In this document: piece after piece, positions 16,801-57,500 of the stretch
Layout of the letters: every line of letters begins with the position of its first letter
How positions within the stretch are numbered: position 1 is the first letter of the stretch
Source: Turritopsis dohrnii
Lineage: Eukaryota > Cnidaria > Hydrozoa > Anthoathecata > Oceaniidae
Direction: 5' to 3'
Length of the DNA stretch: 64,000 nt
Assembly: GCA_027922465.2 (NCBI GenBank)
Contig: BQMF02000204.1
Coordinates: forward strand, 124,001-188,000
Translations under genes and position numbers: made by a program
Notes under the pieces: model-generated
What the model was told of the DNA's origin: nothing
Database searches by the model: none
Seen by the model: only the letters and a program-made list of their open reading frames with translations

Positions 16801-16943
16801 GAAAATCATGTTTGTTTGGGTTTTTTTACCTTTTGGCAATTTTCCGTAATTTCCCACTCGCTAATTAAGCGATCATAGATTGCGTTAAATCCGTGTCCAT
16901 CTATTTTCGCAAAAGGTAAATCATTAATTTCTTTTCAACAAAA

Positions 16944-29660: not shown

Positions 29661-30190
29661 CGGTATTTAACCAAATCCCCCAAAACATTAAAATATTTTA
29701 TAAAACAGAAAAAAGATGTTGAACAGTGATTTATCAATGTGAAGAATCACTAGTGTTTGTTATAAAAGGATAGTTTTGTTCTGAAGTTACTGCAAAATAT
29801 GAACCTTAGATCATCAATCTTAAAGGTTATGCTGTAAATACTGCCCTAAAAGAATGTGAGAGCTTCCAAGTTAAGTCACAACTTTATTCCACAACATCAC
29901 ACACAACATCACTATTAATACGCCATATTATCTCCAAACATAATCCGATAAAACCCGAACGAATTTTTCCCTTGGGAGGAACGGGCATGGTTTTCATCCA
30001 AAACAGAGCTGTTAATTTGCATCTCAATCTGTTAGTGAGTACGTAAATATAAACCATGAATATTATTGTATGGGAAAATTCGAAAACGCAGTGTAAAAAT
30101 AGATACAAAGTTCGATTTCTACCACGAGAAAAGATATTTTTAAACTTTCCCACACTCTCGCAGTGTTAAAAAAGAAAACAATACGTCAAC
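29661..30190. other. 5' flank of the MFSD6-like gene
   Basis: No coding region is seen. It should contain the promoter and 5' UTR of the plus-strand gene starting at 30191. Confidence 0.4.
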
Positions 30191-37633: not shown

Positions 37634-38088
37634 CTGAAACTTTCCCATTATAATCTAAAAAGCACATTTAAAAGAAATAATTCGTCCAATAAATTCATAA
37701 AACTTTACCCTCGTTAGAAATTCATTCCCTAAAGTGAATTTCTTTTGAAGCCAGTTTTCCAACCGGCAGTTATGTGCCTATGTACAGGATGTTCAATCAC
37801 TCTTATCATAACCATGCAAACAAATTTGAAGCATCATAGAACCAGTTAACACAAGAAATCTGATAGAATTACAAACCTTGTCATCTGCTTGTAAAAAAAT
37901 ATCTCCATAATAACGTAATTTCTCTCTCTATATATATTTACAACCTAGAAACGAAAATACAAAACTGTATGTTGGAGAGAAGCTAAAAAAAATTAAAGCA
38001 AAACTCAGTATACTTTCAAGCAAAGTTAAAAATATAGAAGATATAGAAGATGTGGATTGAAAAACAAACAAATAAATCCATCACTTGG
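37634..38088. other. Region that should hold the SLC30A6 5' end
   Basis: No convincing first coding exon was found. It lies between SLC30A6 and ALKBH1, which are in the same orientation. Confidence 0.4.
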
Positions 38089-38215
38089 CCAGTGGGCAAA
38101 ATCGTCAAAAAGACACTGCGATGAAGAGTATTTTTATTGAAATAGTGTGTATACTTCTACAGATTTCTACTTCTCACTCTTTCGCAGTGATTTTTCAACA
38201 AATTTGCCCACTGGG
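38089..38215. mobile_element. Fold-back MITE family F, copy with matched ends
   Basis: The ends CCAGTGGGCAAA and TTTGCCCACTGG are perfect inverted copies. The internal core matches the family. It lies about 110 bp downstream of the ALKBH1 stop. Confidence 0.9.
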
Positions 38216-38324
38216 CTAATTCTACAATTTTGAAATTGAAAATGATGCAGTTTCTGACACACTTTGCACATAACGTTACAATGTTAACTAAAAGTATAAC
38301 ACCGATTCAATCAAAACTAGATAG

Positions 38325-39595
38325 TTATGATCCATGTTCCTTATTATATTTATGTACTTGTCGGATGTTTACATTGATCCTCGTGTTGGACAAATAGTCA
38401 GAAAAATCTTTCCAAGACTCATCCAGTTCAGACTTCCATATATGTTCATGATCTTCCATTGTGTCACATGTATAGCTGTCTTCTGTACAGTCTTTGGTGT
38501 TGACAAGCGGACATGTTCCTATATCCGAGGGCGCTGTTTTCATTGGTTTAGTAACAATACAAGGAACAGCATGAAAGGCAATTCGAGATGGACCTGTCAT
38601 CAACATAATGTCACCAGAACGAACCCAAATTGCTGAAACAGGAAAAAAAGTAACATATTTTCACAGGTCAATTGTTAAAGAACCTTAGAGTATATGGTAT
38701 GTCTCGAAAACTTATACAGAACAGCCAATAAAATTTGAAGGATACTGACCTTCAGGCTTTATGTCTCTGGTTTCACCTCCTATAAGATAAACTGCCGACT
38801 GGCCAAACGAATAAGATACAAGTGGCTGACATAACTCTTCTTCATAATGATCCGTGTGACCACCCATGCTACTTCCTTCTGGATAGTAGTTTATAATACC
38901 TGTTTCAGCAACGTAATCAGGGAATTGGAATGTACTGGCAATTGTCTTTGTGAGTTTGGCTAAGTCTGTCGGAAATCCAAAATATTGTTTGGCTTTATAA
39001 TCCACTATATTGTAATCAAAGTGATACCCCATGTGAACCCATCGCAGTTGATAGATGAACGAGTTATCAGAAGATTTCCTGTAGGTAGTAATAATTTGAA
39101 TAGTGAATGTGCAATGTACAGTATATTACCAGCATTGACTACATTTTACTTGAAAGGTAGTGTAGATCAAAACACCTCTACTTACTGGTGACTTATATCC
39201 CAGATACTATTTTGTTTGTCCAGTTTCATCAGCACATCTAAATTACATGGGTACGGATCTTTTGTATAATCTGTTAAAGCTTTTTTAATCCAATAGCTTT
39301 GTGCGCCATATGAAACAAATGGATTTGGAATAACAATGAAACCAGGACATGAACAAAGTTCATATACCTTCCATTTACTAGGATGTTTAAGTCCGACAGA
39401 ACAATATGAATCAGTGTCGTCAGAAATGTGCAGTGGTGCTTCTCTCAATTTATTTTCATATCTTAAAGGATTGTTGAAGTCAATAACCTCACTAAAGTCT
39501 GGAGGAGGTTTCTTCTTTTTATAACGTTTGTATTCTTTTCTTACTTCATCCTTTTCTTTATCAATATAACAAAAGGTTTTTCTTCCAGTTTCCAT
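38325..39595 (-). CDS. ALKBH1: Alpha-ketoglutarate-dependent dioxygenase ALKBH1
   Basis: Three coding exons: 39186-39595, 38750-39078, 38325-38632, with matching phases. The start METGRKTF lies one base after an acceptor (TTTGTCTTAG), so the 5' UTR is probably spliced. Matches to human ALKBH1: CPGFIVIPNPF, QLRWVHMGYHFDY, ETGIINYYPEGSSMGGHTDH, PLVSYSFGQSAVYLIGG, SGDIMLMTGPSRIAFHAVP, TRINVNIRQV. The Fe(II) ligands are visible (H-x-D in GGHTDH, distal His in FHAVP), as are the two Arg residues of the 2-oxoglutarate site (TRINVNIRQ). ALKBH1 demethylates DNA 6mA and tRNA m1A and makes mitochondrial tRNA f5C. Length about 348 residues (human 389); the human C-terminal tail is shorter here. Confidence 0.95.
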
Positions 39596-40099
39596 CCTAA
39601 GACAAAAAAAAAAAATTGGAAAACTCAACATTGTACTCTCTATTGTTATTTATCATGGCAAACCCCAGAGATAAATGGACTTAAACAGTCCTGACAGACT
39701 TGACTTGGTTTACCCGGTCTTTCTACCAGTTACAAACTTCATTTGTTTTGTTATAGTTGGATAAACTGTATCAAAGCAGATGATTGAGATACAACAGGTC
39801 ATCATGAAAAGGTTTTAAAACCACTTCTGCAGATGTCAGTTACACAGACAAATATTGAATTAATTTTTTCAGATAACTGCTATTTTCGTAGTGTTATTCC
39901 ATATATCAAATTTAAAAAAGATAACAAGATTTTTGCAATTACCTCAAAATTCTATTGTTTTGAATTTCCAATAAATGTCAAAATCAACCATCTACTTACT
40001 TCTTTGTTTAGGGCTGTCAAAAAACACTTTCAAATTTCCACCCAGAGACAAAAATCAAACACCACAATATTTTCTACCTAGTAGAGATTCACACTTGGC
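39596..40099. other. 5' flank of ALKBH1
   Basis: Nothing coding recognised; the plus-strand frame 39833-40081 is low-complexity and unsupported. Confidence 0.4.
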
Positions 40100-40479
40100 C
40101 TCATTCCAAACATTTTTTTAAGGATCATCTGGCCAAAATTTTTTTAGTTGAGGAATGAAAATTTATTCAGAAAATGCTTTTACAAAGTTACTTATCATAA
40201 AATAAGTCAAATAAAAGTTTTTGTACATCGATCATAGTGGAGAAGGGCACTTCTTCTTAAAATAAGGATTGAAAATAACAAATAGGATTTCAAGACCACA
40301 CTTAACTCTTCACAGTTCCTCTTCATGTGCTGCTGGTAATTTTAACTCTTGCTGTGTTTCATAAAACATTTTATTCAGTTATACATTGTGACCTATGTTA
40401 GAGAATGGATGCGTATTTTCGTGACAAGAATCTTTGTTAACTTTTTGCGTCCGTAATTAGGAAGGCTGTCCGTAATTAC
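40100..40479 (-). mobile_element. Inverted copy of the GGACAGCCTTCCTAATTAC element
   Basis: The right end has GTCCGTAATTAGGAAGGCTG at 40449-40468. Inward sequence (TTTTCGTGACAAGAATCTTT; ATGTACAAAAACTTTT-like block) is the reverse complement of the left part of the copies at 28562 and 43089. The opposite terminus is missing. Confidence 0.6.
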
Positions 40480-40949
40480 GAATATTGACAATATATACCA
40501 GATGAGTAAAAAAAAAGTACCGCTGTTTCACAAAAAATATCTTTCGATTTAATAAATATGAAAGATAGTTATTTTTATTTCTGAATAGAGGAATCCTTTA
40601 CCTATATTTTGGTGTATCACTTTTCTAATTTGGTTGAGTAGAAAAAAATTTATGGACAAAAAACTGGAAGTGGTCCTTGTAAAAATCTTTGTAAAATGAA
40701 CAAAAAAGCCTGCTTGGCTTTTTTGACTCACCTGGTATATAATATTGTTTATACCAAACTTTTTACATGAGGAAGTGTGACTGTTTCTTATGTGACAGAA
40801 GGATTACAGAAATTGGTATGTATTGAGCCCTTTCTGTCTCCTAGTGCCTTTTTAACAGTATAATTTTTATAAATTTTTCTTCTGGTCCTGGGAAATTCCA
40901 AAGGTAGAGCAATAGAAAAAATGAGGCAATCTTCAAGGAAATCTTAACC

Positions 40950-41622
40950 GGATTACATCGTGTCAACTTTGTCAACATCACATTCATCCACCTACATTCC
41001 AACACCTACCGTCCATATAAAAAACCAAATGACGCCCTCCTGTATCCTGCCATTCCACAAACAGTGTATTCACCAATATCGCTAAAAGGTTCCTGAAACT
41101 CATTGACAAGCATTTCACCTCCGGCTACTTAAAGAAACTCTTCAACCGCAACAATGGCAAAGTAAGCTACAGTTGTTCTGAAAACGTCGGCAAAATCAAT
41201 CACACAACAAGAAAATTTCATCGCCAAAAAAAGCAACTACACCACCATACAACTACAGAAAGAAGAACTAATGCCCCCTGGGTTGAGACTGCAGAAAAAG
41301 CTCGCTAATTTATAAATGCCAAGTAACGGCACCAGAAGTCCCAAAACGAGTTAACATCGGTTTGAGGGAGAAAGAGTTTAAGCTACAATGGTCACAAGCA
41401 ATGGATTGACAACAAGAAGTACAAAAACAGTACTACGCTCTCCTCCCATGTGTAGAATTTGAAAGATAAGGACATTAAACCAACCTTAAAATGGTCTATA
41501 ATGACCATTGGTCTACCCATGCACAACCATATACAGAAATGCAGCCTTTGTTTGCAGGAAAAATACAAAATCTTCCATTACAAGAACAAAGAGGAGCTAT
41601 TAAATAAACAGAGTGAATATTA
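40950..41622 (+). pseudogene. Decayed Penelope-like element, C-terminal part
   Basis: Broken frames read KRFLKLIDKHFTSGYLKKLF, NRNNGKVSYSCSENV, then after stops LKDKDIKPTLKWSIM and KCSLCLQEKYKIFHYKNKEE LLNKQSE. These match, in order, the RT-distal block and the region after the GIY-YIG nuclease (C-x-L-C-L-x-E-K-Y) of Penelope-like elements. The GIY-YIG core itself (between about 41330 and 41450) is not recognisable. Many stops make it a relic. Confidence 0.65.
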
Positions 41623-42356
41623 AAGCCAAGTGCAGGCATTTGAATAAGTTTTTATTGCTAATTAGGCCGATGGAAATTTTATATTAGTTTAGCGACACTT
41701 ATCTCCTGAAAATGTCAAGTGGCATGTTTTCATTATTCATAATTTTGTTCTAGTGGCATACATAGCCGGAGAACACATCAAATGTGCCATTTTTCATTAT
41801 TCGGTACTAGTTTGAGCTTTCAAATTACTTGAGACCCGTTTTTTCAATCGCATTATTTAAAAAGAAGAAATTTTCATGGAAGTTAGTTTTGCATATTAGG
41901 TATATATTCCTCAAAGTTGGCTTTTTCAGCATGTATCGGATAGAAATCAACCCTAACTCTATTTTTGCAAAACACTGCAAAAATTGATGTCTACTTTGGT
42001 TACGTATCGGAAGTCAAATTTCGCTACATTTTATTAAATTGAACACACTGGCCAAGTCATTAGATGTGTGAGAAGAGCAACTTGGACATTTTGAACCGTG
42101 GTATGATGGTTGGAGGTGGGTAGGCAAGCAAATGAAGTGGATGATGTATATTGAATGGATGTATATTGTTGTTTTTAAGAATTTTCATTTTGTATTGGAA
42201 TAATGAAATTTTGTAAAATAATGAACTTAGAAATCAGAAGACTTAGTGTGAATTGCTCTATTTGATATGACATTTAATTGCTGTAATTAGATGTAAATAT
42301 ATATTTTCCCACTATACTATAAGATCACAGTGTAAAGGTTTTTCATACTTGTTTAG
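41623..42356. other. Gene-free stretch
   Basis: AT-rich; nothing coding recognised. Confidence 0.4.
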
Positions 42357-42511
42357 CTGAAGACTGCGAGAGCATGAAACTGGCAGTACCAAACTGCGTG
42401 ATTCCGATTGTAAAATATCACCTGAATCGCCTTCAAGAGAAACAATCAATTTCTTCCGAAACTAACGACGAAAAACATCAAAATTTACGTCATATTCAAG
42501 AGTCTAGCTGA
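42357..42511 (+). CDS. Possible orphan terminal exon
   Basis: After a good acceptor (CTTGTTTAG at 42349-42356) a frame of 51 codons reads EDCESMKLAVPNCVIPIVKY ..., ending in HIQESS and TGA. Composition is protein-like and the stop is natural, but I found no upstream partner exon and no family. It could be a real last exon of an unannotated plus-strand gene or chance. Confidence 0.3.
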
Positions 42512-43088
42512 ATGTAAAGAAAATTATAATATATATGTCTCAAAAAAATTATGTTCTTCACTGTTGTTTCTGTTTTTCTTCCTTTTTCCTTTATTAATAA
42601 TATCTTGTTTTTAAAAACACGAAAAAAAACCCCGAATGTTCTATATCAGCAATTAATTACATGTTTGCAAGGACTTTGTGAAAAGTTGCCGTATCTCATG
42701 GGAAGTTTAATGACTTATCCGAATAAATTTAAATAAGCGTGCTTTTTCTCTATGATGATAGGTCTCAAAAATTTCGTTTGAGATTCAATTAAATTTCAAT
42801 GTTAATTTCGTTTTGTATTAACGAGGGTCACACATGTTTGACCATCATAAATATTTTTTGTTTTATATACTAATATTCGCTGACCTTTTACGGTCGAACA
42901 TTTATCGCAAATGAGAAATGGTGGTCTGTTAATACTTTAATAATAGTGCTTTAAAAACATACCAAATATAATTATAAGTAATTTTGCACTCCTCATAACC
43001 TGATGGGTTACATTATAAAATCAGGATGAAAAATAAAAATAAAACTTCAGTCTGGCCTTTAATAATGAACTTTCAACTTTGTATATAC

Positions 43089-43720
43089 CGTCTATGTGGC
43101 AGCCTTTGTTATTATGGACATCAAAATGTAAACAAAGATTCTTGTCACGAAAATAGACATGCACTCTTGCCAAGTTCACCATGTATAACTGAATAAAATG
43201 TTTTATGAAACATAGCAATAGAGACCAATACTCAGTAAGAAGTTTCCTCCCCCACTGTGATTGACGTACAAAAACTTTACTTGACTTATGATAATTAACT
43301 TTCTAGAAGCATGATCCAAAATCAGTTTCATTTCCTCAATTTTTAAACATAAATTTTCGACCTGTGGAAGCCCTTTGTTCCGTACGATGACATTACAGAT
43401 ATTTCATAACGGAGGTGGCCATTTTTACTTTTTATCCGTAAATATGGTTACCATTGTACACACGGAGCTCATAAAAATACGCATGATTCTCAAGAGAGCA
43501 GTCTATTTTAGAAGAAATCTTTAAAGTTTAGCAAAATAAATTCTAAACGGCATATTGGTAATTTTCTAACGTTCAAATAAATTTAATTATCTCTAAAGTT
43601 TGCTTTATTACAGTTTGGTTGACAGTACAGGATGTGCTATGTTTTTAATTTACAGACGGTTTTAGAATTATATATGTTTTGATTGATGTCCATAATAACG
43701 AAGGCTGTCCGTAATTAGAC
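43089..43720. mobile_element. Fold-back element, third copy of the AGCCTT-ended family
   Basis: The left end GGCAGCCTTTGTTATTATGG and right end CCATAATAACGAAGGCTGTC are inverted. The inner left segment (AAAGATTCTTGTCACGAAAA; CCATGTATAACTGAATAAAA) matches 28590-28690. About 0.63 kb, non-coding. Confidence 0.75.
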
Positions 43721-44196
43721 ACACAGACACTACTGAAATCACAGATTCAATGCTCTACTGTTCCAAGCATTTAATTATCATTCATCATAACATTGTTATC
43801 AACAAAAAAGCAACAAGCATCCGTGAATCGAAGTCACCCTGGGCCCCCATAATCGATATTGTCGTTTTGTTGGAAAGATTAAGTTATTTCTTTGGAATGA
43901 CAAGATTAGGTATTGTGAAATTTTGCACTGAAATAGAAAACATACATAAGGTAATAATTCCAAAGTTTCAGAAGTAAATGGTTTAAGTATTTCGGAAGTT
44001 ATTTTTAAAATAGTGGCAAAATTGATCGAAGTCACGTTTCACGGTAGCTATATAATTAATGATCAGCTTAAGTGGGGTTTAGTGTGTTTTGAACATTTAA
44101 AATGACAATAAGGACTGATAGTCAGCTTGTCTCAATTTCTTCTTGAAAAACGTATTCACTCCCCCCATTCATTCATTTTAGAAAATGTTCTTCTTC

Positions 44197-44198
<2 letters not shown>

Positions 44199-44237
<39 letters not shown>
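44199..44237. repeat. 39-base poly-G run
   Basis: Uninterrupted G tract about 330 bp upstream of the HPRT start. Its length in the true genome is uncertain because such tracts assemble poorly. Confidence 0.8.
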
Positions 44238-44239
<2 letters not shown>

Positions 44240-44570
44240 TGCACCAAAAAGTCAAATTAACACAAAAAACCTAGCATCAATTGTCCAAATAATTCTCTCT
44301 TAAAAACAGTATTTACATAAAGTTTCTATCAAATTTCATCGATAGAAAATAGGACTTTCAGAAGACTTTCAGGATAAAGCATAAAAAATTACCCAGATTA
44401 GAATTTGGCAGCTTCAGCGGCCATCATTCTTGATGTTGATGTTTGTCCCGTTTTTTAATCCGAAACCGAAAATCAGCTGATTCATCAGTTTTTGCTTCAG
44501 AAGCGAAATCAGGTGTTCAAGCTTTCGTCTTTGGACCCTCGGCTGTCATAAGGACGAGATACGTGAAGCA

Positions 44571-47500
44571 ATGGAGCCTAGTTTCATCAAGGTAAAATTA
44601 CATTTATATACATATGTGGACAAGTTGCAACCATACTTCTGAGAAAAATTAATGCCTATTGATATGTTTAGGTATGAGTGTGCAAAACCTTCCAAGATTA
44701 GTTTCTCGTTGCGATGGGCTCAGCGTATACCTTTTACTTCACATATGCATTGCATAACTTTTTCCGTCCTTTCTTTTTACCCGTACATTTTAAGTAAAAT
44801 TATTTTTTGAATTCATGTAGAGCAATAAATTTTCTTTCCAACGGTGTATAAAATGATATATAAGGAGGGAATTAGTCTAGTGTAAAAACAATCAAAAATA
44901 TGGACTTTTGTGTGCTTCTTTGAACTCCAAGTCTCGCGAAATCTCAATTAATGGTTTTGTTCAGGAGAAAAACAATTTTTTGTTTTTTCCATACTTCCAC
45001 GATATTGGATAGTTTTAGCCAATCAGGAATTTTCTCTCAAATTGCGGGCACACTTTGTTAACAGGCTTTCATCTACCGCTGTGCAAAGTTTTAAACGAAA
45101 CAAGCCACTTGCTAGGAAGATGGAGCTCAAAGAAAGGTAGAACACTAATTATTTATCATCACATCCCAGGCAGCAAAATCGGCAAAAAGTCACTGCGATG
45201 GAGGGCACTCTTATTGAAATTGTGTGTATATTTCTATAGAAAGGCACTCCTTCGCAAAGATTTTTTAACAAATGTGCCGGCTGGGATACACGACAATATG
45301 ACAGCCTTTAATAAATTCAGAAAGTGAGCTGCCAATTTAATTCTACGGTTTTTAAGTATATTATAACAAATTATATTAAAGGTTCTCATAACTTAGAAAA
45401 TGTTGAATAACGAAAAATGCCTATAACTTTCTCAAAAAGCAATATTTTCCCTATGAATTTAAATTGTCAAAAAAAATCTGAACAAAAAAAGTTGACTTTT
45501 GAAACGTATATATGCTGAGCCCTTAATGAATGATACACAAAATAAATTATGTTTTCAAAAATCATTTTTTCAATATCTATAATGGTTCTATTAAAAAATT
45601 TTATAACTTGACCAACTTTTTATAAAAAATGTCATAAAAATAAGTCACACCTTTACGTAACATGTTTTTCTATAATTGTGTGAAATTTTGGGAAGATTTC
45701 TCCCATTTCAGACAATGGTTATTTCATTATTGAAATTTCTATTCCTGAGTTAAGTAGTCTATCTCCTAAATAAACAATACTGTACCTAATCGTGGAGTTA
45801 AATTTAGCTGTATATAGAGATTAAGTGTTGTATATATATACCTGTTTATTTTATTGGGTTTTTTTTTTTTTTTTTTCAGGTTGATGATGATTATAAAGTT
45901 TATTCTACCAAACACTTTAATATTCCAAGGCATTATGAAGATGCAATTGGGTCAGTTCTGATTCCACATGGGATGGTCATTGACAGGTAAATAAAAACTA
46001 CTTCAGCTGAAAAGAAGAGGGTAATAGATTAACTAATATAAACGTTCTCAGACTCTTTGACTTTTGCAATTAGAACTTACTTATATTATTGATTTTCATG
46101 ATAATTATTAAATTTTATAAATTAGTAAACAAATATGCTCATCAAGTAGTCTGATGAGATTGAAACCACTGTTGGAGGTGATGTTATACATAGCTTTTAC
46201 TTATACACCACATTAATATCAAAATGTGAAGTTTTTATCATTTATAAATCGTAAAAATACTTACTATAAATATTTATAGTTGGATATCTAAAAGATAAGT
46301 GCTCAACTTTATTTTAGAATTGAACGGTTGGCGAGAGATATCCACGAAGGATTTGATTCTGAATCGATTACTATACTTTGTATATTAAAAGGAGGCTTTC
46401 AATTTTGTCAAGATCTGATGAGCTGCATTAAAAAAATTAACAGTAATTCACGTAAGATAAAAATGCTTTTTGCAAAATGTCATTTTTTTGTGTATATATC
46501 TGGTCAATTTCATATGGTTCTTTTATAGCGAAATCAGTTCAATTAGGGTTGGATTTTTTAAGAGTTAAAAGTTACACTGTGAGTTGTGTTTTTTTCTTCA
46601 TCATTCAATTTTGACATTGATTGACAGTCTGTAAAAACTGTATGCAGGATGTAATTATTTTTGATTTTCTCATGTTTTAGAAAACCAATGTTTTTCATTG
46701 CTTTTTAATTACTGTCAGTTATTCATATTACATATTCACAGAGAGTGCAATTTCATAACAACAAAACTTCTGTGCTTAAAATGCAATGAAAACCTCTGTT
46801 CGCTCATTGTTTTTTATCAAAATATTTTCCTTCAGAATGAAAATAGCGGTGAAGTGAAAATATCTGGAAGTGATGATTTAAACAAGTTAAAAGGAAAGGT
46901 ATGAGTTGTTTTTAAGTGTAAAATATTTTTTTTATCCTCCCGTTATAAGTACCTTAATCCTTTTCTTTTTTTCCTTTGCAGAATGTTTTAATTGTAGAGG
47001 TAAGTGTTAGAAGTTTAATTGCAAACTGTGCTATTCTGTTATATCAGCATGCCAGTTTCTCCATCATGGTAAATATTATCAATAACCTCACATTCATTCG
47101 TTTCATACAAACTAGGATATCATCGATACTGGGAAAACAATGAAAAAACTTCTGGCCACACTTTCAAAATATGAACCAAAGTCATTAAAGGTTGCAACGT
47201 AAGTTTCTTACAAATAAAAGCATCTTGTGCTTAGCATCATTTATATTGCTATTCCAACCTTCCTGTCCTGATCCCTTTCTGAAATAAAACGATGTTAAAA
47301 AACATTTGTTTTTTTTTTTTTTACTGGTTTCTAGGTTGCTAGTTAAACGTCGTGAAGATAGCACTGGCTACCGACCTGATTGTATGTTTTGTCTAATTTA
47401 TTAATTTATATTGTCTAACCTCAACTATTTTATAATTATTAGTTTGAACAAAGCTAATTGAGGTTTTTAACGACAGATTGCTTTTTTGAAATAATGTAGT

Positions 47501-48419
47501 AAATGAATCCAACAACAAATGACACACCATTTTATACTGAAAATAAACCCATTAAAAACTGTTGACGACAGCCTGTTTCCAGGGAACTGTCAGTGTGTTC
47601 ATAAGTATGAGGGCAATTTTCCCAACAAAATGGAAGGTTGTTTTTTTCTGATAACCGTCACATTCTCATGCATGCTCATATCAACAGATGTTGGATTTGA
47701 AGTTCCAAACAAATTCCTTGTTGGCTATGCATTGGTAAGATGATTTTGCATTCATTTCATTTTCTTAAAAGAAAGCAAACTTTTAATACCTGACTTTTCC
47801 TTTGTTTAGGATTACAACGAATATTTTCGAGACTTAGATGTAGGTGAATTTAAATCTTCCATTTAATCTTTAGCATTTATTAGCGAAAAGTCTTAATTCT
47901 GCGATTTGCGACTTATCTAATGAAATAGTCTCCTTGTAATACATGACAAATAATAAGGAAAAACGAAGTGAGCACAAAACTATTAAAAGGATCAAATATT
48001 CTCGTTTTCTGGAATTCTCAAAGGAACAAATTAGTTCCTCTTACTACATGCCCTTCTTTACCTCGCCCCTGAAGTGATGCTGGTACATTTAAGAAGGTTT
48101 CAAGTTATATACGTCTCAGTTTTAAGAAAGTTACAATGTATTTGACCTCCTCCAAGTACTTGGCTGGTTTCGTCATTTACGCTATACAATTTGACATGTT
48201 TCGTCATTTACGCTATACAATTTGCTAAGCGATTTTCCAATGTTTCTTTTTGCGAATGAAAACCTTCTACGATCAGGTTTTGTATTGGTTACAAATGCTT
48301 TCATGTGGATGAGAAAAATGAATGCGCATAAGACGTTTCTTTACGATTGTTCCTCTCCCTTATTATTTCAGCACATTTGCGTCATAAACGATTCAGGCAA
48401 GAAGAAATACGCTGTGTGA
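44571..48419 (+). CDS. HPRT1: Hypoxanthine-guanine phosphoribosyltransferase, isoform A (proximal terminal exons)
   Basis: Eleven exons: 44571-44591, 45880-45986, 46318-46451, 46529-46578, 46836-46898, 46982-46999, 47116-47198, 47335-47381, 47688-47734, 47810-47839, 48372-48419; 215 residues (human 218). Exon sizes equal the human ones: 107, 134+50=184, 63 (human 66), 18, 83, 47, 47+30=77. So two introns (inside human exons 3 and 8) are extra. Motifs: DYKVYSTKHFNIPRHYEDA, LIPHGMVIDRIERLARDI, CILKGGFQF, LGLDFLRVKSYT, the PRPP loop NVLIVEDIIDTGKTM with the catalytic Asp, LLVKRR with the base-contacting Lys, and KFLVGYALDYNEYFRDLDH (Phe stacks on the purine; Asp binds Mg). Cytosolic purine salvage: hypoxanthine or guanine + PRPP to IMP or GMP. 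Confidence 0.97.
45165..45285. mobile_element. Fold-back MITE family F, copy in HPRT intron 1
   Basis: CCCAGGCAGCAAAATCGGCA ... AATGTGCCGGCTGGG; same core as the copies at 36911 and 48560. Confidence 0.85.
46982..46999 (+). CDS. HPRT1: 18-bp HPRT microexon
   Basis: AATGTTTTAATTGTAGAG encodes NVLIVE between TTTGCAG and GTAAGT. It is identical in length and position to human exon 5. Confidence 0.95.
48167..48224. repeat. Tandem duplication, 31-bp period
   Basis: Two copies of TTTCGTCATTTACGCTATAC + AATTTG in HPRT intron 10. Confidence 0.9.
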
Positions 48420-48559
48420 ACTGTCGAAACAATCCTGTTAGTAATGATTCGCAGAGAAGAAACTTTCAAAATCTTCGGAGATCTTTAAACTGTTTATCCG
48501 TTACTATGGTTACGTCCTTTCTGTTCACTATTTTACTTCACAGATCGTTTTAAAACATT

Positions 48560-48678
48560 CCCAGTGGGCAAAATCATCAAAAATCACTGCGACGGAGAGC
48601 ATATTTATTGAAACAATGTGTAGATTTTTATAGAAATGCACTCCTCCGTGGAGATCTTTAATAAATGTGCCGGCTGGG
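48560..48678. mobile_element. Fold-back MITE family F, copy between the two HPRT terminal cassettes
   Basis: CCCAGTGGGCAAAATCATCA ... AAATGTGCCGGCTGGG. It sits about 140 bp after the isoform A stop codon. Confidence 0.85.
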
Positions 48679-49417
48679 TTGCTTTTCCTCGCCTCGCGTT
48701 TGCTGAGTAGCTTAACTTTGTCTCCATGTATTTTTATATTTCACTGGTTTTGTAAACATTCTTGATCTCATGTGACTTAAAGAATCCATTTTGATTGGTT
48801 GTAGAAGCGTGTGAAATCTAGTTCGTCTGTTCGTACCTTTTAAGTTGATATTAGTTTATTTCTTGTGTTCTTTTTCTATCCCTGTTCACACCTACCGCAC
48901 CTATCTGGATAATTCATCTTATGCAATTCTATTTCACTGTTACTGTTCGGTTTTGAAGAGAGTTAATATATTACCTTTTAGTATAATATTTTATATTTGA
49001 TACCACCCGATGTAGTTTGAGTTTTATTGACTGTTTGTTGGTATTATGGTGTGATAAAAAGAATTTTTTTAATTGATATATTAATCACGTGACTTTATTT
49101 TCCTCCCATTCGAGACCCATGTCCATGGCTATGAATTTTGATTGATTATGGAAATGATTCTTCATATCAAACTATTATTAGACAGTATGTTCCGCAATTG
49201 AATATTGTGGCTTGGATTAAGTGACCGTTTGTAATCGGTGCAAAATCCAATAACTGCTTTATCGAACCATCCAAAAATTGAACAAAATCCTTAATTAGTA
49301 GAGCTGCAGAGGTAGTGATACGTAACCCTCTGAAAAACGCGCGAGTATACGCGGTTTGAAGTGTTGTCTGTGTGAGTCGAATTTTTCATATGAAAATAAT
49401 TTTACTTTCTGTTGTAG

Positions 49418-49872
49418 ACCTTGGTTTTGAAATCCCAAATCTTTGGATCAGTGGTTATGGAGGTTTCGTAAGTACTTTCTTATGCTTTTAGAGGTTTTTT
49501 GGAACGAAATCAACTGATGGATAAGATATGACTTTCGTTTATTTCAGGATTACAACGAATACTTTCGCGATTTAGATGTAAGAAAATATATATTTTTTTT
49601 GTATGAGGGCGTTTGGTGGAAGCTGAAGGGTGTCTTGAGGGTGTCTGTTCTAATCGAGACAAAACAATCTTTGGTCTTGCAAATAAAATGAATGATTACA
49701 AAATCAAAATAGCAACTTTTGTAGTAGGCTACCCAGAATTTACTCAGAATTCTTTCTGATAAAGCCACAAGTCGTCAAGTCTGTTCATATAGACGCCACA
49801 TTGTTTTTTCAGCACATAGTTTTGATGAATGACCACGGTAAAAAGAAATATGCGGCAGAAAATCTGCAATGA
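49418..49872 (+). CDS. HPRT1: Second HPRT terminal-exon cassette (isoform B)
   Basis: Exons 49418-49467, 49548-49577 and 49813-49872 repeat the structure of 47688-47734, 47810-47839 and 48372-48419. Each has its own acceptor (TTGTAG, TTTCAG, TTTTTTCAG), donors GTAAGT and GTAAGA, identical phases and its own stop. Spliced from exon 47335-47381 it gives YLGFEIPNLWISGYGGFDYN then EYFRDLDHIVLMNDHGKKKY AAENLQ. Compared with isoform A the purine-stacking Phe becomes Trp, the next residue is Ile, and ALD becomes GGFD with one extra residue; the Mg-binding Asp and the downstream Arg are kept. The intact frames, splice sites and conserved NEYFRDLDH argue against decay. It may be an alternative ending or the remnant of a second gene copy whose upstream exons are gone. 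Confidence 0.85.
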
Positions 49873-51557
49873 ATCGTTTGTGACGTCAACATTCATTTCA
49901 TTGTCAACAAAACTTGCACAATAATTATAAGTGATCCTTCACAGAAAACATATCCTTTCACGCATTGGCATGTTGTCACTGTTTTGCACTCATTGGCATT
50001 CTGAAATACAGATGAATACAGGCACGGAGAAGGAGAGTGATGAAAAGATGCAAAAAGAAGAGGTGGTGGAGAGGAATATTTGATGTTCAACAAATCAACA
50101 CAAAATTATATAGAATTTGTTTTTGTAATTATACAATATAATTTTCTATATCAATTTTTTTTCAAAAAATTACTTGATATATATACTTTAAGTGTGTCTT
50201 CATTAACATCAACTTCCCGTAGGCAAATCTCTTATTTTTGTTTGAATGAACGATAACGCTCTCATCTCGATATCCCAAATAAAGTTAACCCAAATTTAGA
50301 TGAACGGTAGCCTTGATTCTGCACTTCTTCAAACGTAGACTTGAACTCGCGAATAAGATAAGTATTTCAATTTTGAGATCCCCCAGGATAGTATATATCC
50401 TTGTTTTATGTTCGACTTGTTTAGCTTTTTTATCTCGATTGTTTATAGTGTTCTGCTATGTAATGTGAGTCAATGATAAGCTAGGCTGTGATTTAGTTAG
50501 CTTGTCTGAATCAATGAAAATTATGAATCAATGAAAATTATGTGAATTTAATATCAGGAAATATTTTCAAAATGGTGACAGCATGTCCTTTCTTGCTTTG
50601 TGCTTTGTGCGATGAAAAGTGAATGCTTTCATTGTGACCAAGGAAAATACTGTTATAAAAGTTTGTTTGTTTGTTTGTTTGTTTATTTATTTCGAAGCAA
50701 TATCAAGACTTTTTGGTTTGACAGTTAAGATTTATACGTTTTGTATTGACTTAATGTTTCCATTATGATGCGAACTTAATATTGTTTCATGACAAAAACT
50801 GCAATGAACATTTTCGCACAGTGTGAACCATGCATAAGCGTGTGATTTGAATTTCGGATCACATCGAATACATTTCGGACGTATCAATAGGCAAATGTGG
50901 ATTTGACGACGTAAGCAAAACGTTTAAAAAGTTGAAAAGACGTTTTTCTATAATTGCAACTCCGTTATCAGTAAGACTTCAAAATATGAAGCACAAAACA
51001 TAAACACAAGTTCCACATAGAAAATGAGGTTTTTAATTACGCATAATTACGCCTTGTTGTCGTTGCGTAAAATCGTTAATCGGGGCCACCTGTTTTCGTA
51101 TTCCTATGGTGGGACGGCAGCTACGACGACGGGGGAACGAGAACGACGATGACCGAGGAAAACAATTCATTCATTCGACTTCATAATCTTCATAGATTTC
51201 CTGTAGAATGGAAGTCTATTTCAAGCTAAGCTATTGGGAAATTCATGAACCATCTTTAAAAGAAACTTCTTGAATTTTCTGTAAAACTTCTGTTGTTTTA
51301 GTGGTGAAGTATTTGCCATATTATAAAGTTAAATAATAAGTTATTTTGCACTGAAGATGGTTTTACCGAAAAGCTTATGCTAAAAAAGATTTTACACTTT
51401 TAATTCTGTTGTTTTGTTTTGTGATTCATTGTGCATGAATACACGTATATTTTTTTATTAGCAACCCAGTTTAAGCAACCCTTGGCACAAATCTTTAAAA
51501 AAACTTAAGCAACTTTCCTCCTTGACCCAAGTTTTTATCTAAAAAACTAAAACGAAA
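49873..51557. other. Intergenic stretch after HPRT
   Basis: Contains a GTTT tract at about 50660-50686. 51100-51160 is locally GC-rich with ACGACG repeats. I see no supportable gene. Confidence 0.4.
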
Positions 51558-51767
51558 ATGCAATCCCTGCTGAAAAAGTACCTGCATCCAGCAGATACCG
51601 ATGCAGATCTTTCTACTCATGAAGATTCCCAATCTGATTCTACTGACGATACTCTTACTCATAAAGATTTCCAAGCTGATTCTCCTGATGATCTTTCTAC
51701 TACAGAAGATCCTCAAGGTTATCCAGCTGCTGATTTCCCTGATCCAGAAGATCCACAAAGCGCCTAA
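51558..51767 (+). CDS. Possible small acidic repeat protein
   Basis: A 69-residue frame starting MQSLLKKYLHPADTDADLST made of about four imperfect 13-14-residue units with the pattern D-L-S/T-T-x-E/K-D-x-Q-x-D/Y-S/P. It is strongly acidic. No relative is recognised and there is no splice evidence; repeat structure alone can keep a frame open, so coding is uncertain. Confidence 0.3.
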   Translation: MQSLLKKYLHPADTDADLSTHEDSQSDSTDDTLTHKDFQADSPDDLSTTEDPQGYPAADFPDPEDPQSA

Positions 51768-52119
51768 AATCCAAAACTGACGTTATTGAGAGTATTGTAT
51801 ATGCTATGTTTCTATGTTTCTAACGCTTCTTTTTCTCTCATATGTGAGAACCTGACTCTCGCCCTCTCTCATTTATAGCGGTTTAAGGACTACCGACTAT
51901 TACCAGGCTAAGAACCCCCAAAATTTGAAAAAATCATTAATATCGAAAAAAAATGGACTTAAAGGCGCTTTGTCAAATCACGGTAGTATTAATACATTCC
52001 CCAAATTCCATCAATTGTAAATCACAGTCGAAATAATAAATATTTCACCTTTTCATGCAATTCTTCTTTTGTTCCAGTTTTCCCAAAATCTCTCATGCTA
52101 TATAGTCAATGCATCCATG

Positions 52120-52245
52120 TGTAATGATACTCGACGGGGAGTACTTATTTTCGGAGGGAGTACTTTTTTCCTACTAGGAAAGTAATGGAGAGTACTTATT
52201 TACTAGGTAATAAATACTGGGGAGTACTTTTTCTGAGGAGTACTT
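52120..52245. repeat. Degenerate GGAGTACTT repeat
   Basis: Six copies of GGAGTACTTTTT-like units, partly palindromic (AGTACT), irregular spacing. Confidence 0.7.
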
Positions 52246-52439
52246 TTTTACTGCGACACCGGAATTTCTGAAAGTTTTGGGGAAAGTTCGAGACAACGAA
52301 AACATCCGCGTTCATTAAAACCGTGTTAATTTGTGCCCCGCGTAATTTAACCGCCCATTATTAATGTATCGTGTAATATATTGTGATATTTTTCAATTTT
52401 TGTAAACAAATTGTTGAAACAACAGGTTTTCTATTTTTA

Positions 52440-52634
52440 TGTAAAAATACAAACATAACGAGTCACTCGCACAGTTTGAAACCTTACCACGCCAAAGTTA
52501 TAACCGGTATCTACGATTACCTGAGTTCAGAGAAAGGAAAAGCAATAATGAAAGATGGATGGAAGGCAACGGGGATACGAGAAGCATTAAACGATGCAAG
52601 ATTAAACGATAAGTGCTTTGAACCATTAGCATAA
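52440..52634 (+). pseudogene. Possible pogo/jerky-type transposase C-terminal fragment
   Basis: The frame ends LKPYHAKVITGIYDYLSSEK GKAIMKDGWKATGIREAL and onward to a stop. The pattern L-K-x-x-H-A-x-x-(I/V)-x-x-(I/L)-Y-x-Y-(L/M)-(S/T)-S-E...GW-x-x-(A/T)-G-I is like the C-terminus of pogo/CENP-B-type DDE transposases. No catalytic region is seen upstream. Confidence 0.4.
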
Positions 52635-54097
52635 TCAAATAGCAGACATTAAGACGCACACTGTTTGTATTTAGTTTTCTTTCTTGTGTTTTATTATGTA
52701 GGTAATATATTACGACTCAACGTTGAAGCTTTTGATTTCCTTTCGGTATTCGAAAATACACCTTCCAAGTCATTTAAGCTAATCCAGAGTCAAAAATACA
52801 AAAATAGTCCGCCTGTTAATTTCGTGTAAAGGTATACATCAAAATATGCACTGTATATGCACTATTTATGTACCATATCCTTCATTTCACCATTTGTTTT
52901 ATTTAAAACTCAACATTCACTGTTTCTTATTTTCCTTTCCCACAATGCCTCTCTACTTGACTGTTTTTCTTGTTTGGTCTTGAAATTTCAAAATTATTAC
53001 CGTTGCTACCGTTTCGCGCCATCTGGCTCTTGTTTAAGATTAATGTAAGCAACTGTTTTGCAATTTTCTTACAACAATATTACGCTCATAATATCATTAA
53101 AAACTGAACCAAGTTTTCCATGAGTTGCGTTCACGGAGTGTACGGCAATTCTTCTAATTTCGCGCGGGCCAAGGAATAACTATTTTCGGCAGTTTCTGCT
53201 ATTAAGTAGATCCCAAAAATTCCCCCGAAAATCCGCGTTAAATTAGAACTAAAATTTGAAAGAATAACAGTATTGTTAAAACCTGATGTGTTTGAGGTTT
53301 GTCTAGAATAAAATCCAGAACCCTACCTCGAAACTAATCTGGCACGACTTGTGATCGGGTTTTATTACGTTATAACTCAATAGTGGTCTCTACTGTTTCC
53401 AGTTCCCACTCCAATAATTAGTAGCTAGCAGTTTGAATAAGCGAGGTTAGACAAGATAAGTCGACCACAATACAGCGTTTCAACAGAAACTGTCAAATTT
53501 ATTTCTGCGAGGACCGAATTTCTAACCAATGAAAAGGCAAAGCAAAGTCCACAAGTTGATGCGCTTGATGTCCAATAGATCTTTCTCGAATTTCTCGCTT
53601 TTAACATTCAAACTGTTTCTTATTATTGGATGGGAACTGAGAATAATAGAAACTATTATGAAGTTGTAAAGTATTGAAATCAATGGAACAATGGATCGCA
53701 TAAAAACGAGGTTATGAAACTCGAGCACAGTTCAGAGTTTAAACTAAATATCGGGAAAGGTCCATTACAAAACATGAAAACTCAAAACGTGTAAAAGTTC
53801 ACAACATATTAAACTTTAAGTACAAAATGTTTTTCTTACATAGTAAAAAATGAAAAGAAAATATAGTGCAATGTGATTGTAAAAAAATGGCACCTAACAA
53901 CGCCGATGGCCTCGTTTTCAACCAGAAATTAGTAATACCCAAATTAGTAATACTCTAGTCGTTACCATAGAAACGAGACAAAACATGTTAACCGAACACA
54001 TTTCATGGTCACGTGATAGTTCAACAGCATTGCGCCTATTTGCGCTGCAATTTCATGATTTGCCATCAAAAGAAAATTGTTGTTGCAGCTGATTGGT
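52635..54097. other. 3' flank of the cubilin-like gene and intergenic DNA
   Basis: 53003-53034 shares a 30-bp motif with the SLC30A6 intron at 35781. No supportable gene. Confidence 0.4.
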
Positions 54098-54556
54098 TTA
54101 AAACACTTCTTTGTAAACCAATCGGAATCCGTTGTAGCGATTGTTTTCAGCATTAGAAACAAACTTGACAGTCACGTGGTTTGTTGTTGAGGTTCTTGGA
54201 GCTGGGTGATCGATTCCACAAAATTTTCCCCATGATATGCTTGGATACACGTCAAATAACTAAGAAAATACGAAATTGAGCGGAGGAGAGATTGTTGGAA
54301 AAGGTGTGGAGGAAGTTTGACAAATTTCCAACTCCAAAAAAATCGATTACATGCATGTTTACCTCTAGATAATCTGCAGTTGAACAATCAAGACCAGCAT
54401 CAGGAAACTGAAGTTCAAAATGAGTCACGTTCAATTGTATCTTTTTTCCAAAAGAGACCGTGATGTTCCATTCACAACTTAATGCGGCGCCGTAATACGA
54501 CGGGAAATTCGGGGATGTAAACGAACCTTCCGGTCCCGTAACTGAAGCACGGCAAA
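54098..54556 (-). CDS. CUB-16, last domain and stop
   Basis: Exons 54363-54556 and 54098-54259. CRASVTGPEGSFTSPNFPSY, SCEWNITVSFGKK, DCSTADYLE/LFDVYPS, KFCGIDHPAP, KFVSNAENNRYNGF (Asn replaces the calcium-type Asp), ending EVF-stop. Confidence 0.9.
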
Positions 54557-57500
54557 CTAAATAAATTCAAATCATGATTTCAACGGACAGCGCAAAAACA
54601 TGTCATATGAACCAAGTATCACAAATAACATAATCCAAACCTGTTTCAGACGCTACGTAAAGGAAAGAAAACCCGCTGTGCTCAGTAAATCTGTCAGATT
54701 TGAAATTCATATGCACAATATTGCCAGTACTATAAAAGCTGGGCGGGAGGGTGTCTCCGCAGTAAGAGCGATTGTTGAAGAGGGCGGAGGACGAAACTGC
54801 GTCGCCATCATATATTCTGACATAATCATACACACAGTTTCTAGCGTATTCAACGTGAAACACCACTGGATACAGTGAAATGGTTTGACCAACAGGAGCT
54901 TTGATGACGTAAGTGCAGTCGTTCTCTGAATTGTAGTTTAATGGATAGTTTGGCGAAGTGATCAATCCAGTGGAATCTTCATACGTCTGGTTACAGCCTT
55001 AATACAAGTTAAAGAATAGAAGTTTCGTAGAACTTCTTAGAGCTCAGAAGTGAGCTGATGATGATATACCTTTTATACTTTGATACGTCAGCAAAAAAGT
55101 TTCGTTAGTCCAAACTTGCCGAAACGACAGCCTGAGTAGACGACCAGAGGATGTAAAGTCTAGTTTACTGTTATTGCTGCATAAATTATGTTCCCTGTTT
55201 GATAGAAGGCCGTCCACGACATTTAACTGAGTGCTAGATGAAATAATAGATGAAATAATAGATGAAAAAGGGAAGTTAAACATAAAGCAGTAACAGCGTC
55301 TTTTTTTAATTTCTGAAAAACATTTTTTTTTTCCGATATGAGAAATGACTTAGACATCAATGCTTAAAATACCACTCAGATTAAAAATACCACTCAGATT
55401 AAAAAAACACTCAAATTAAGAATACCACTCAGATTAAAAAAAAAAAACTCAAAAACGTCATTAAAAAACATTTAAAGTTTGTCACTTATTTATCTGATGA
55501 AATATAGATCCTTCAAATAAGATTTCATGAAAACTCAACTATCACGTGCGTGTTTACTGTTTGTGAAGCCAACAAAACTCGAACACTCACCTGTCACACT
55601 CGCCACTACTCGACGATATATGAAACTGCTGAACGATTACTCGAATTTGCTCGTCTACTGGAGCTATTATTAACCAATCACAGTTGGCTCCAGACACCGT
55701 GTTTGTTGGATTACGTAATTCAATTTTGTTTCTATTAGCATACAACTTTTCTCCACAACCTAAAATGATGACGTATTTGTACACACCTCAATTCTAACAT
55801 TGCTACAAAGAACTCCATCAATGTCAAGAAACAAATACTTAACTTAAATTGCCAGTGTGCAGTTTTTCAAGCGCATCAGAGTTTCAAGATGGAATCTCAA
55901 GATGTACTTGGGACTTAAAATCGACCAATCAACACGAGAAGAAGAAGAATCAAAACATGGCGGACATTACCTGGCACGGTTTGATACGAAACAACAAATC
56001 GATTTTCACTTGCAGCCTCAATCCAACTTGAATAAAATCGAACGTATAAATGATTGTGGATGGAGATGATTGGTTCAGGAACGACGTCACCACAAAGTGC
56101 CCTGAAAAAAAAAAATAACAACAGTGAGCTAAGAAAAATGGGTGTGGACAAACTAACATCAGTTTTAATCCGGTAAATACCTGGTTCGTCGGAAATGATC
56201 ATCCGGATAACGTGCATCGTAAATAAAGATGAACCGGTTACACCCTTCATTTTCAAATAGAGGTATGTTCGCAAGATTGAATTCAGAGAATGTCAAGTTG
56301 ATTTTTTCGCCAAACGGCACTTCAATACGCCATCCGCAATCCAGATCAGTTGGCACAACTCCGGGGTAACCAGGACTTTTTATTACACCGCTGGTTGCGT
56401 TGAGACTTCCACCACAACCTGGTGAAAGAAGATTTGTAAAGATACAATATGTGGATTCATTAAGCCATTGAAAACTATTGACAATGAACTATAAATCTTA
56501 CTTAAGGACCCTTCAGAATACTCCAATTGAAAACCTCGGCCTCCCAGGCTGTGGTCACTCTTGAATTTGATATAAAGAAGGTTGCCAGTACTTTGGAGCG
56601 GTGGTGGACCCATACCGCCACAAAACCGTCCAAAAAGCGGCGAGTCTTTCGTTCCTCCGTCACGTATTTCCACGTAATCATACCGACAACTCGGACCGGA
56701 ATATTCCAAATCAAATGATTTCGTCAGAAGAGAAATCCGTTTTCCAACGGGAAACTCGATAACCCATTCACATTCCTCTTCATGGTTGTATTTGTCTTCG
56801 TGAAGAAGTTGAACGACTCCTTTTGACGAATCTTGTATTCGCTCACCACAGGCTATTAAAGAACAAGTTAAACAAAGTCTTGAGTTAACAAGTACGTAGA
56901 CAAATTTGTCTCCCAGTAAGAAAACGCAAGAAAAGCCTGGAACCATCAAACTACGATCTGTTCATGCGAACTTTCTGTAGCACTCCCTTTAAGACCTGAG
57001 AACAAACTGATCGAGTACAAAAAAAGAACTAGTTACTGCAGTGAAGGTTTTCCACAAACCTGCTATCATATGTGACTTCACCCGATAATTCCCGATGTCG
57101 GTCACGTTATCCGATACGAAGCGGATGAACAATTGATGGTATGGCGTATCATATGTCGGTGGCAAACCGTCTCCGCATAGTTTGGTGATCAGCGGCGAAT
57201 CGAAGTCTAAACCTCCTCGAAGTTCCACAAAATCAGAACACTCGCCGAACGAATTAGAAGGGGGTAACATAAACTCGTTTTCAATCATTTTCACATGGTA
57301 ATGAGGCTGCAGGTCAACCACCCAACGGCAATCTTGATTTGCGGGATAGGTTAACGGATAGTTTGGTGTTTTGGCGTAACCACCACGCCCTTTGATAACG
57401 CCTCCACAACCTAATGGCATATGACAAAGGCATTCATAACATTAAGCCAATCGAGTACTAAAACCAAAAGAAACGAAAACATACCTGTGTTAAAGGAGAG

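What the first reader, a model, noticed from the sequence alone, without database searches (positions are those of the whole stretch)
47335..49872. HPRT gene with a duplicated, splice-ready terminal cassette that changes the purine-binding loop
Exons 47688-47734, 47810-47839 and 48372-48419 are repeated at 49418-49467, 49548-49577 and 49813-49872. Each set has intact sites, the same phases and its own stop. Set A reads NKFLVGYALDYN, like human KFVVGYALDYN; set B reads NLWISGYGGFDYN. By human numbering this puts Trp at 186 (the residue that stacks on the base), Ile at 187 and Phe for Leu192 with a one-residue insertion, while Asp193 and Arg199 are kept. From memory, Trp at this position is typical of several guanine/xanthine-using enzymes (E. 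coli XGPRT, Giardia GPRT, Toxoplasma HGXPRT). One gene may thus make two enzymes with a shared PRPP site and different base preference. I know of no animal HPRT with alternative terminal exons.
Basis: partly seen in the sequence, partly recalled or inferred. Interest (0 to 1): 0.88.

Follow-up and report, generated by a model that had tools for sequence, protein, structure and literature searches.

The report
HPRT gene with two alternative ends
In the genome of what is likely a hydrozoan (a relative of the colonial polyp Hydractinia), the gene for the purine-recycling enzyme HPRT has two intact alternative sets of final exons, so this one gene is predicted to make two versions of the enzyme that differ in the loop holding the purine base, which would probably change how bases are recognised.

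Summary
Eight shared exons are followed by two three-exon cassettes, A and B. Both have GT-AG sites, matching phases and their own stops. They give a 215-aa and a 220-aa HPRT that share 175 residues. Sensitive tblastn found no other HPRT exon in the window, so B is not the tail of a nearby complete second gene. A and B differ at 89% of synonymous but 19% of nonsynonymous sites, which fits neither an assembly duplicate nor decay. The strongest support is outside the window. Two unnamed database proteins (P0006, P0017) share 175 identical N-terminal and 25 identical C-terminal residues and differ only in the block encoded by the first cassette exon, one B-type and one A-type. They look like a natural splice pair. 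The B loop (GYGGFDYN) occurs in 15 of 158 retrieved HPRTs; the only named one is Clytia (Hydrozoa). Besides the GGF insertion, Leu178 marks B (14 of 15). Altered base handling is likely but untested. A xanthine-using isoform is speculation.

The parts
44571..44591 (+). HPRT shared exon 1 (21 nt, MEPSFIK)
   Evidence: ATG start, GT donor
45880..45986 (+). HPRT shared exon 2 (107 nt)
46318..46451 (+). HPRT shared exon 3 (134 nt)
46529..46578 (+). HPRT shared exon 4 (50 nt)
46836..46898 (+). HPRT shared exon 5 (63 nt)
46982..46999 (+). HPRT shared exon 6 (18 nt, NVLIVE)
   Evidence: too short to be seen by tblastn
47116..47198 (+). HPRT shared exon 7 (83 nt), completes the PRPP-site motif VEDIIDTG begun in exon 6
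47335..47381 (+). HPRT shared exon 8 (47 nt), carries the Lys165 equivalent; its donor is the branching splice site
47688..47734 (+). cassette A exon 1 (47 nt): purine loop VGFEVPNKFLVGYAL
   Evidence: acceptor pyrimidines 9 of 16, tied lowest of 13 acceptors
47810..47839 (+). cassette A exon 2 (30 nt): DYNEYFRDLD
48372..48419 (+). cassette A exon 3 (48 nt with TGA): HICVINDSGKKKYAV
48660..48665 (+). AATAAA, possible poly(A) signal for A, 241 nt after its stop, lying inside a repeated element
   Evidence: hexamer only, AATAAA also occurs in introns at 47542 and 49682
49418..49467 (+). cassette B exon 1 (50 nt): variant purine loop LGFEIPNLWISGYGGF
   Evidence: acceptor pyrimidines 12 of 16
49548..49577 (+). 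cassette B exon 2 (30 nt): DYNEYFRDLD, 3 differences from A, all synonymous
49813..49872 (+). cassette B exon 3 (60 nt with TGA): HIVLMNDHGKKKYAAENLQ
50278..50283 (+). AATAAA, possible poly(A) signal for B, 406 nt after its stop
   Evidence: hexamer only

Best explanation
This HPRT gene, likely from a hydrozoan, carries two intact alternative terminal three-exon cassettes, and splicing of exon 8 to one or the other is predicted to make two enzymes with the same PRPP-binding body but different purine-binding loops and C-termini. Choosing cassette A would give an ordinary animal HPRT that ends at a near poly(A) signal. Skipping A and joining 47381 to 49418 would give isoform B, which carries the GYGGF loop. 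The phases make the two loop exons mutually exclusive: if A1 and B1 are both included the frame is lost. Shown: the gene model, the phases, the saturated synonymous divergence with protein conservation, and a protein pair from another organism that differs only in this exon block. Inferred: that both isoforms are made in this species, that the A/B difference began in an ancestor shared with Clytia, and that isoform B handles bases differently, because the changed residues line the base pocket.
For: Gene model and phases. A1 with B1 gives a frameshift and early stops. Outside the listed exons, tblastn of five HPRT queries found only weak matches (E 0.088 or worse, in the whole window and in 48420-49417, 36000-44570 and 49873-56000 searched apart). 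A versus B cassette: pS 0.89, pN 0.19; null 0 of 2000. P0006 and P0017: 175-aa identical prefix, 25-aa identical suffix, differing only in HYGFSVPHVWITGYGGF versus QYGFEIPKCFVIGYAL, which starts at the codon split by the exon 8 junction in the window and ends at the exon boundary predicted from the window. They stand for 2 and 3 contigs with longest 1027 and 1119 nt, short for a gene that spans 5.3 kb here, so probably cDNA. B signature: GYGGF in 15 of 158 retrieved HPRTs; Leu178 in 14 of 15 B versus 3 of 143 A; Val or Ile at 205 in 4 of 15 B plus the window's B versus 0 of 143 A. Window B exon 1 matches 14 other B exons at 10-14 of 16 residues but six A exons at 6-8 of 15. Both isoforms pass the HGPRTase cut-off (186.9 and 170.0 against 150 bits). 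AlphaFold models of P0006 and P0017 are confident (mean pLDDT 88.3 and 88.2); P0006 matches human HPRT at TM 0.91. Human F186 stacks on the purine ring in an inhibitor complex (PMC11089518, passages); Val187 and Asp193 contact the base (PMC2228302, passages).
Against: No RNA from the window's own species was available. No enzyme activity was tested. P0006 and P0017 come from unnamed sources, and their shared tail means a one-exon swap there, not the window's three-exon swap. The Hydractinia symbiolongicarpus (P0044, P0074) and Hydra vulgaris (P0046) proteins found are A-type only. Confidence over residues 191-200, which hold part of the loop, falls to 74 in both models. In P0006 the loop exon is less like the window's B than the body is (62% against 69%), the one exception of 14. 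Exon 2 and its intron flanks are unusually alike between A and B (76% over 75 nt), so part of the cassette may be younger or gene-converted. The pS/pN test compares A with B and cannot say how much of the constraint is on B alone.
Confidence: 0.76

Rival explanations
1. Cassette B is the surviving tail of a second tandem HPRT gene (partial duplicate or assembly collapse) and is not spliced to this body.
For: Two HPRT-like proteins with different bodies are annotated in Hydractinia symbiolongicarpus on contigs of equal length, presumably one contig (P0044, P0074). Clytia has a B-type protein on a strongly diverged body (P0008).
Against: No further HPRT exon found in the window (exons as short as 18-21 nt would be missed, the longer ones not). 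A collapsed copy would be nearly identical in DNA, but synonymous sites are saturated. B1 has an intact acceptor in the right phase for exon 8. P0006/P0017 show both loops on one identical body.
Confidence: 0.08
2. Isoform B is made but its base preference is unchanged; the swap mainly alters stability, subunit contacts, kinetics or regulation. (Compatible with the splicing part of the best explanation.)
For: Lys165, Asp193 and Arg199 equivalents and the PRPP motif are kept. Some B forms keep Phe186 (5 of 15). The C-terminal exon changes too.
Against: The recurrent B changes sit in the purine loop: the GGF insertion directly before Asp193, and Leu178 in 14 of 15.
Confidence: 0.4
3. Isoform B is an HGXPRT-like enzyme that uses xanthine. 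(Compatible with the splicing part of the best explanation.)
For: In T. brucei the stacking residue differs between the xanthine-inactive HGPRT-I (F166) and the xanthine-using HGXPRT (Y201) (PMC5843355).
Against: T. brucei HGXPRT differs from HGPRT-I widely (35% identity), so one residue is not shown to be the cause. Trp is not fixed in B. The Trp/xanthine correlation is recalled only; searches did not turn up a source for it.
Confidence: 0.15
4. Cassette B is a relic or cryptic terminal cassette with no protein product.
For: No expression data for this species.
Against: Three intact splice-competent exons, no in-frame stop, purifying selection between the cassettes, and B-type proteins in 15 database clusters.
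Confidence: 0.05

Closest known systems
coq-2 mutually exclusive exons 6a/6e in helminths, annelids and molluscs (PMC7434440, passages seen)
   Same: A metabolic enzyme gene with two homologous alternative exons that remodel the enzyme core, found in several phyla.
   Different: coq-2 uses one internal exon and has tested effects and RNA-seq; here there are three terminal exons with separate stops, and the effect is untested.
CYP4F3 splice switch of substrate specificity (cited in PMC7434440; original papers not seen)
   Same: Alternative splicing changes substrate choice.
   Different: Different enzyme class; function tested there, not here.
Toxoplasma gondii HXGPRT splice isoforms (PMC6381282, one passage seen)
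   Same: Alternative splicing of an HPRT-family gene.
   Different: There exon skipping changes location (cytosol or inner membrane complex); no purine-loop swap is mentioned.
T. brucei HGPRT-I and HGXPRT (PMC5843355, section 21 and passages seen)
   Same: Two related enzymes in one organism with different stacking residue and different base range.
   Different: Separate genes with 35% protein identity, not splice forms.
PRTFDC1 (PDB 2jbh)
   Same: A second HPRT-like protein in animals and the best sequence match of isoform B in the PDB.
   Different: Separate gene (recalled) with an A-type loop (LFVVGYALDYN in the alignment).

Membership tests
HPRT (HGPRTase) | Passes the curated family score | tested here: met
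   TIGR01203 cut-off 150 bits; isoform A 186.9, B 170.0
HPRT (HGPRTase) | PRPP motif and base-pocket residues (Lys165, Asp193, Arg199 equivalents) | tested here: met
   VEDIIDTG at 130, LLVKRR at 160, loop at 182, EYFRD at 195 in isoform B
HPRT (HGPRTase) | HPRT fold with the B loop | tested here: met
   Tested on P0006, not on the window's own spliced protein: pLDDT 88.3, TM 0.91 to human HPRT
HPRT (HGPRTase) | IMP/GMP synthesis from hypoxanthine or guanine | not testable with these tools
   needs enzyme assay
Mutually exclusive / alternative terminal exons | Adjacent homologous exons with the same phase, similar length and intact sites | tested here: met
Mutually exclusive / alternative terminal exons | Joint inclusion breaks the frame | tested here: met
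   A1+B1 gives frameshift and stops; the hybrids A1+B2+B3 and A1+A2+B3 would stay in frame
Mutually exclusive / alternative terminal exons | Both forms seen as products of one gene | tested here: inconclusive
   Not testable in this species; P0006/P0017 pair with an identical body in another, from unnamed sources
Mutually exclusive / alternative terminal exons | RNA-seq shows exclusive use | not testable with these tools
   no reads available
HGXPRT (xanthine-using HPRT) | Uses xanthine | not testable with these tools
   needs enzyme assay
   Trp in 9 of 15 B-type proteins, Phe 5, His 1; Trp is present in the window's B

The most novel reading that the evidence does not exclude
Hydrozoans have an ancient splice switch for purine salvage: one HPRT gene makes a standard enzyme and a second one whose base-binding loop is rebuilt for a different base spectrum. 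The same B module has been packaged in three ways in the group: a terminal cassette (this genome), a single swapped exon (P0006/P0017) and a separate gene (probably Clytia).
Probability: 0.33. Interest if true: 0.85.

Novelty: new variant of a known kind. Interest (0 to 1): 0.64.

Why it matters
HPRT is one of the best-studied human metabolic and disease genes, and animals are generally taken to make one standard form from it (general knowledge). A conserved splice choice that rebuilds its purine loop would be a rare case of substrate handling set by splicing. It would give natural pairs of enzymes that share one body and differ only in the loop, which suits a test of what sets hypoxanthine, guanine and xanthine choice. 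It may also show how an alternative exon turns into a separate gene, or the reverse.

Tried and rejected
Rejected: B as the tail of a nearby complete gene (tblastn of the whole window, and of the intervening and flanking stretches apart, found nothing better than E 0.088 outside the listed exons; exons of 18-21 nt would be missed). Rejected: assembly duplicate (synonymous sites saturated). Rejected: Trp186 as the defining B residue. Weak result: intron comparison. Only the short first intron of each cassette shows residual similarity (1 of 300 shuffles reached the score; second intron 90, flank before 22, flank after 136 of 300). These shuffles kept base counts only. Weak result: AATAAA hexamers as poly(A) signals; two of the four between 47300 and 51500 lie in introns.

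Not reached: the window's whole genome (genome search on 'own' did not complete), DNA for the P proteins, and cluster members behind the 90%-identity representatives, which could hide further A/B pairs. The 158 proteins are the union of what three searches listed: 43 of 43, the best 120 of 1102 and the best 120 of 7947, so they are not a random sample.

Dropped rows: P0012 (173 aa, body grouping with other animals, possibly a chimera) was left out of alignments A1-A3 and of the identity table (14 of 15 B proteins), but kept in the residue counts and in the tree. The tree has 36 rows, from 36 of the 127 proteins then fetched (P0006 and P0017 merged) plus the window body; its outgroup was not a clean side of any branch. 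Alignments A1 and A2 used 64 of those 127.

The Clytia origin of the A-type protein P0128 is inferred from its TCONS label (recalled style of Clytia transcript names) and is not shown.
Full report
Observation. I rebuilt the gene from the sequence. Eight shared exons (44571-47381) lead to two sets of three exons. Every junction is GT-AG, the running phases are the same for both sets, and each set has its own TGA. The products are 215 and 220 residues with an identical 175-residue prefix.

Is it one gene? Sensitive tblastn of both isoforms and three relatives against the window found the HPRT exons already listed and, elsewhere, only weak matches (E 0.088 or worse); the 998 nt between the cassettes hold nothing better. 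Exons as short as 18-21 nt would escape this search, the longer ones would not. The codons of A and B differ at 14 synonymous and 13 nonsynonymous places out of 41, with 14 identical. By site counting pS is 0.89 and pN 0.19, and none of 2000 random placements of the same 40 changes gave as few amino-acid changes. So the two cassettes are old and the pair is constrained; a collapsed assembly copy would not look like this. The test does not tell how much of the constraint is on B alone. Joint use of A1 and B1 destroys the frame, while the hybrids A1+B2+B3 and A1+A2+B3 stay open. The acceptor of A1 has 9 of 16 pyrimidines, tied lowest of the 13 acceptors, and that of B1 has 12 of 16. A weak near site and a stronger far site would permit regulated skipping; this is inference. 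Each cassette has an AATAAA downstream (48660 and 50278), but the hexamer also occurs in introns at 47542 and 49682, so these are only possible signals.

Relatives. A search with the B tail found 43 proteins, and two full-length searches gave more (best 120 of 1102; best 120 of 7947); 158 were fetched in all. Fifteen carry GYGGF before DYN; 143 do not. The only named B-type protein is from Clytia hemisphaerica, a hydrozoan; the other 14 are from unnamed sources. The closest named relative of the window's isoform B is Hydractinia symbiolongicarpus isoform X2 (76% over 98% of the query), itself A-type. In the body tree the window groups with the unnamed P0025 (100/99) and then Hydractinia X2 (93/84), so a hydrozoan origin of the window is likely. 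B-type bodies fall in two places on the hydrozoan side of that tree: a Clytia-like clade of four (100/100) and a looser set of eight near the base of the remaining rows. P0012 falls with other animals and may be a chimera.

The key pair. P0006 and P0017 share 175 identical residues before and 25 after the block HYGFSVPHVWITGYGGF / QYGFEIPKCFVIGYAL. The block begins at the codon that in the window is split by the exon 8 junction and ends where cassette exon 1 ends. They stand for 2 and 3 contigs, the longest 1027 and 1119 nt. The simplest reading is two transcripts of one gene that swap one exon. Here the tail is shared, unlike the window, where exons 2 and 3 are doubled as well.

What is constant in B. 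At human position 186, A-type proteins have Phe in 142 of 143 and Trp in 1; B-type have Trp in 9, Phe in 5 and His in 1. Leu at 178 is in 14 of 15 B and 3 of 143 A; Val or Ile at 205 is in 4 of 15 B and in the window's B, and in 0 of 143 A. GYGGF is the criterion by which I called B, so its constancy is by definition; the other two features were not used to call it. The window's B exon 1 matches 14 B exons at 10-14 of 16 residues and six A exons at 6-8 of 15; it is closer than the body in 13 of 14 comparisons, P0006 being the exception. An active-site loop may be better conserved anyway, so this last point is weak.

Function. In human HGPRT Phe186 stacks on the purine ring of an inhibitor (PMC11089518, passages; one passage there prints F158 for the human residue), and Val187 and Asp193 contact the base, with Lys165 on O6 and N7 (PMC2228302, passages). 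The B changes touch 186, 187 and the residue before Asp193. The pocket lysine and the PRPP motif are shared. Both isoforms pass the HGPRTase family score. P0006 is predicted to fold as HPRT; part of the loop region is less certain in both models (74 over residues 191-200). So isoform B is probably an active HPRT with altered base handling. Which base is favoured cannot be said. The T. brucei pair shows Phe in a xanthine-inactive enzyme and Tyr in a xanthine-using one (PMC5843355, section 21 and passages), but those enzymes differ widely.

Known context. Alternative exons that remodel an enzyme core are known, and described as rare by the authors of the coq-2 work, who cite CYP4F3 (PMC7434440, passages). 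T. gondii HXGPRT is alternatively spliced, but this changes location (PMC6381282, one passage). My paper searches on HPRT with alternative exons or with cnidarians found no report of this (listings only; open-licence PMC). I therefore call it a new variant of a known kind.

Limits. No RNA or reads for this species, no DNA for the relatives, own-genome search unanswered. Database entries are 90%-identity representatives, so further A/B pairs may be hidden.

Noticed in passing
48555-48685: A repeated element of about 120 nt lies in the 3' flank of cassette A and supplies its AATAAA; similar copies at 36910-37027 (83%), 45164-45285 (80%, intron 1), 38089-38163 (83%) and 36295-36381 (76%).
   Followed up: partly
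47784-47858 and 49522-49596: Exon 2 of both cassettes is alike beyond its borders (76% over 75 nt including intron flanks), which hints at gene conversion or constraint on splicing signals.
   Followed up: partly
P0047 (database protein): An A-length HPRT with Trp at the stacking position (NVWISGYAIDYN), so Trp occurs without the GGF insertion.
   Followed up: no
P0074 (Hydractinia symbiolongicarpus): A second HPRT-like protein on a contig of the same length as P0044's, with an odd N-terminus and a short gap before the PRPP motif; a tandem paralogue or a poor gene model.
   Followed up: no
44199-44237: A run of about 39 G upstream of the HPRT start codon; possible assembly or sequencing weak spot.
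   Followed up: no
54252-63801: Several minus-strand ORFs that look like CUB-domain exons of one gene; CUB confirmed by Pfam in the two ORFs tested.
   Followed up: partly
16920-18753: ORFs that look like a reverse-transcriptase-type element by eye; the one ORF scanned (17746-18750) had no Pfam match.
   Followed up: partly
23698-25835, 30170-31546, 38712-39125, 26824-27477: Pfam matches: PR domain (PRDM2_PR) and C2H2 zinc fingers, an MFS transporter, a 2OG-Fe(II) oxygenase, and a COX6A-like ORF.
   Followed up: partly
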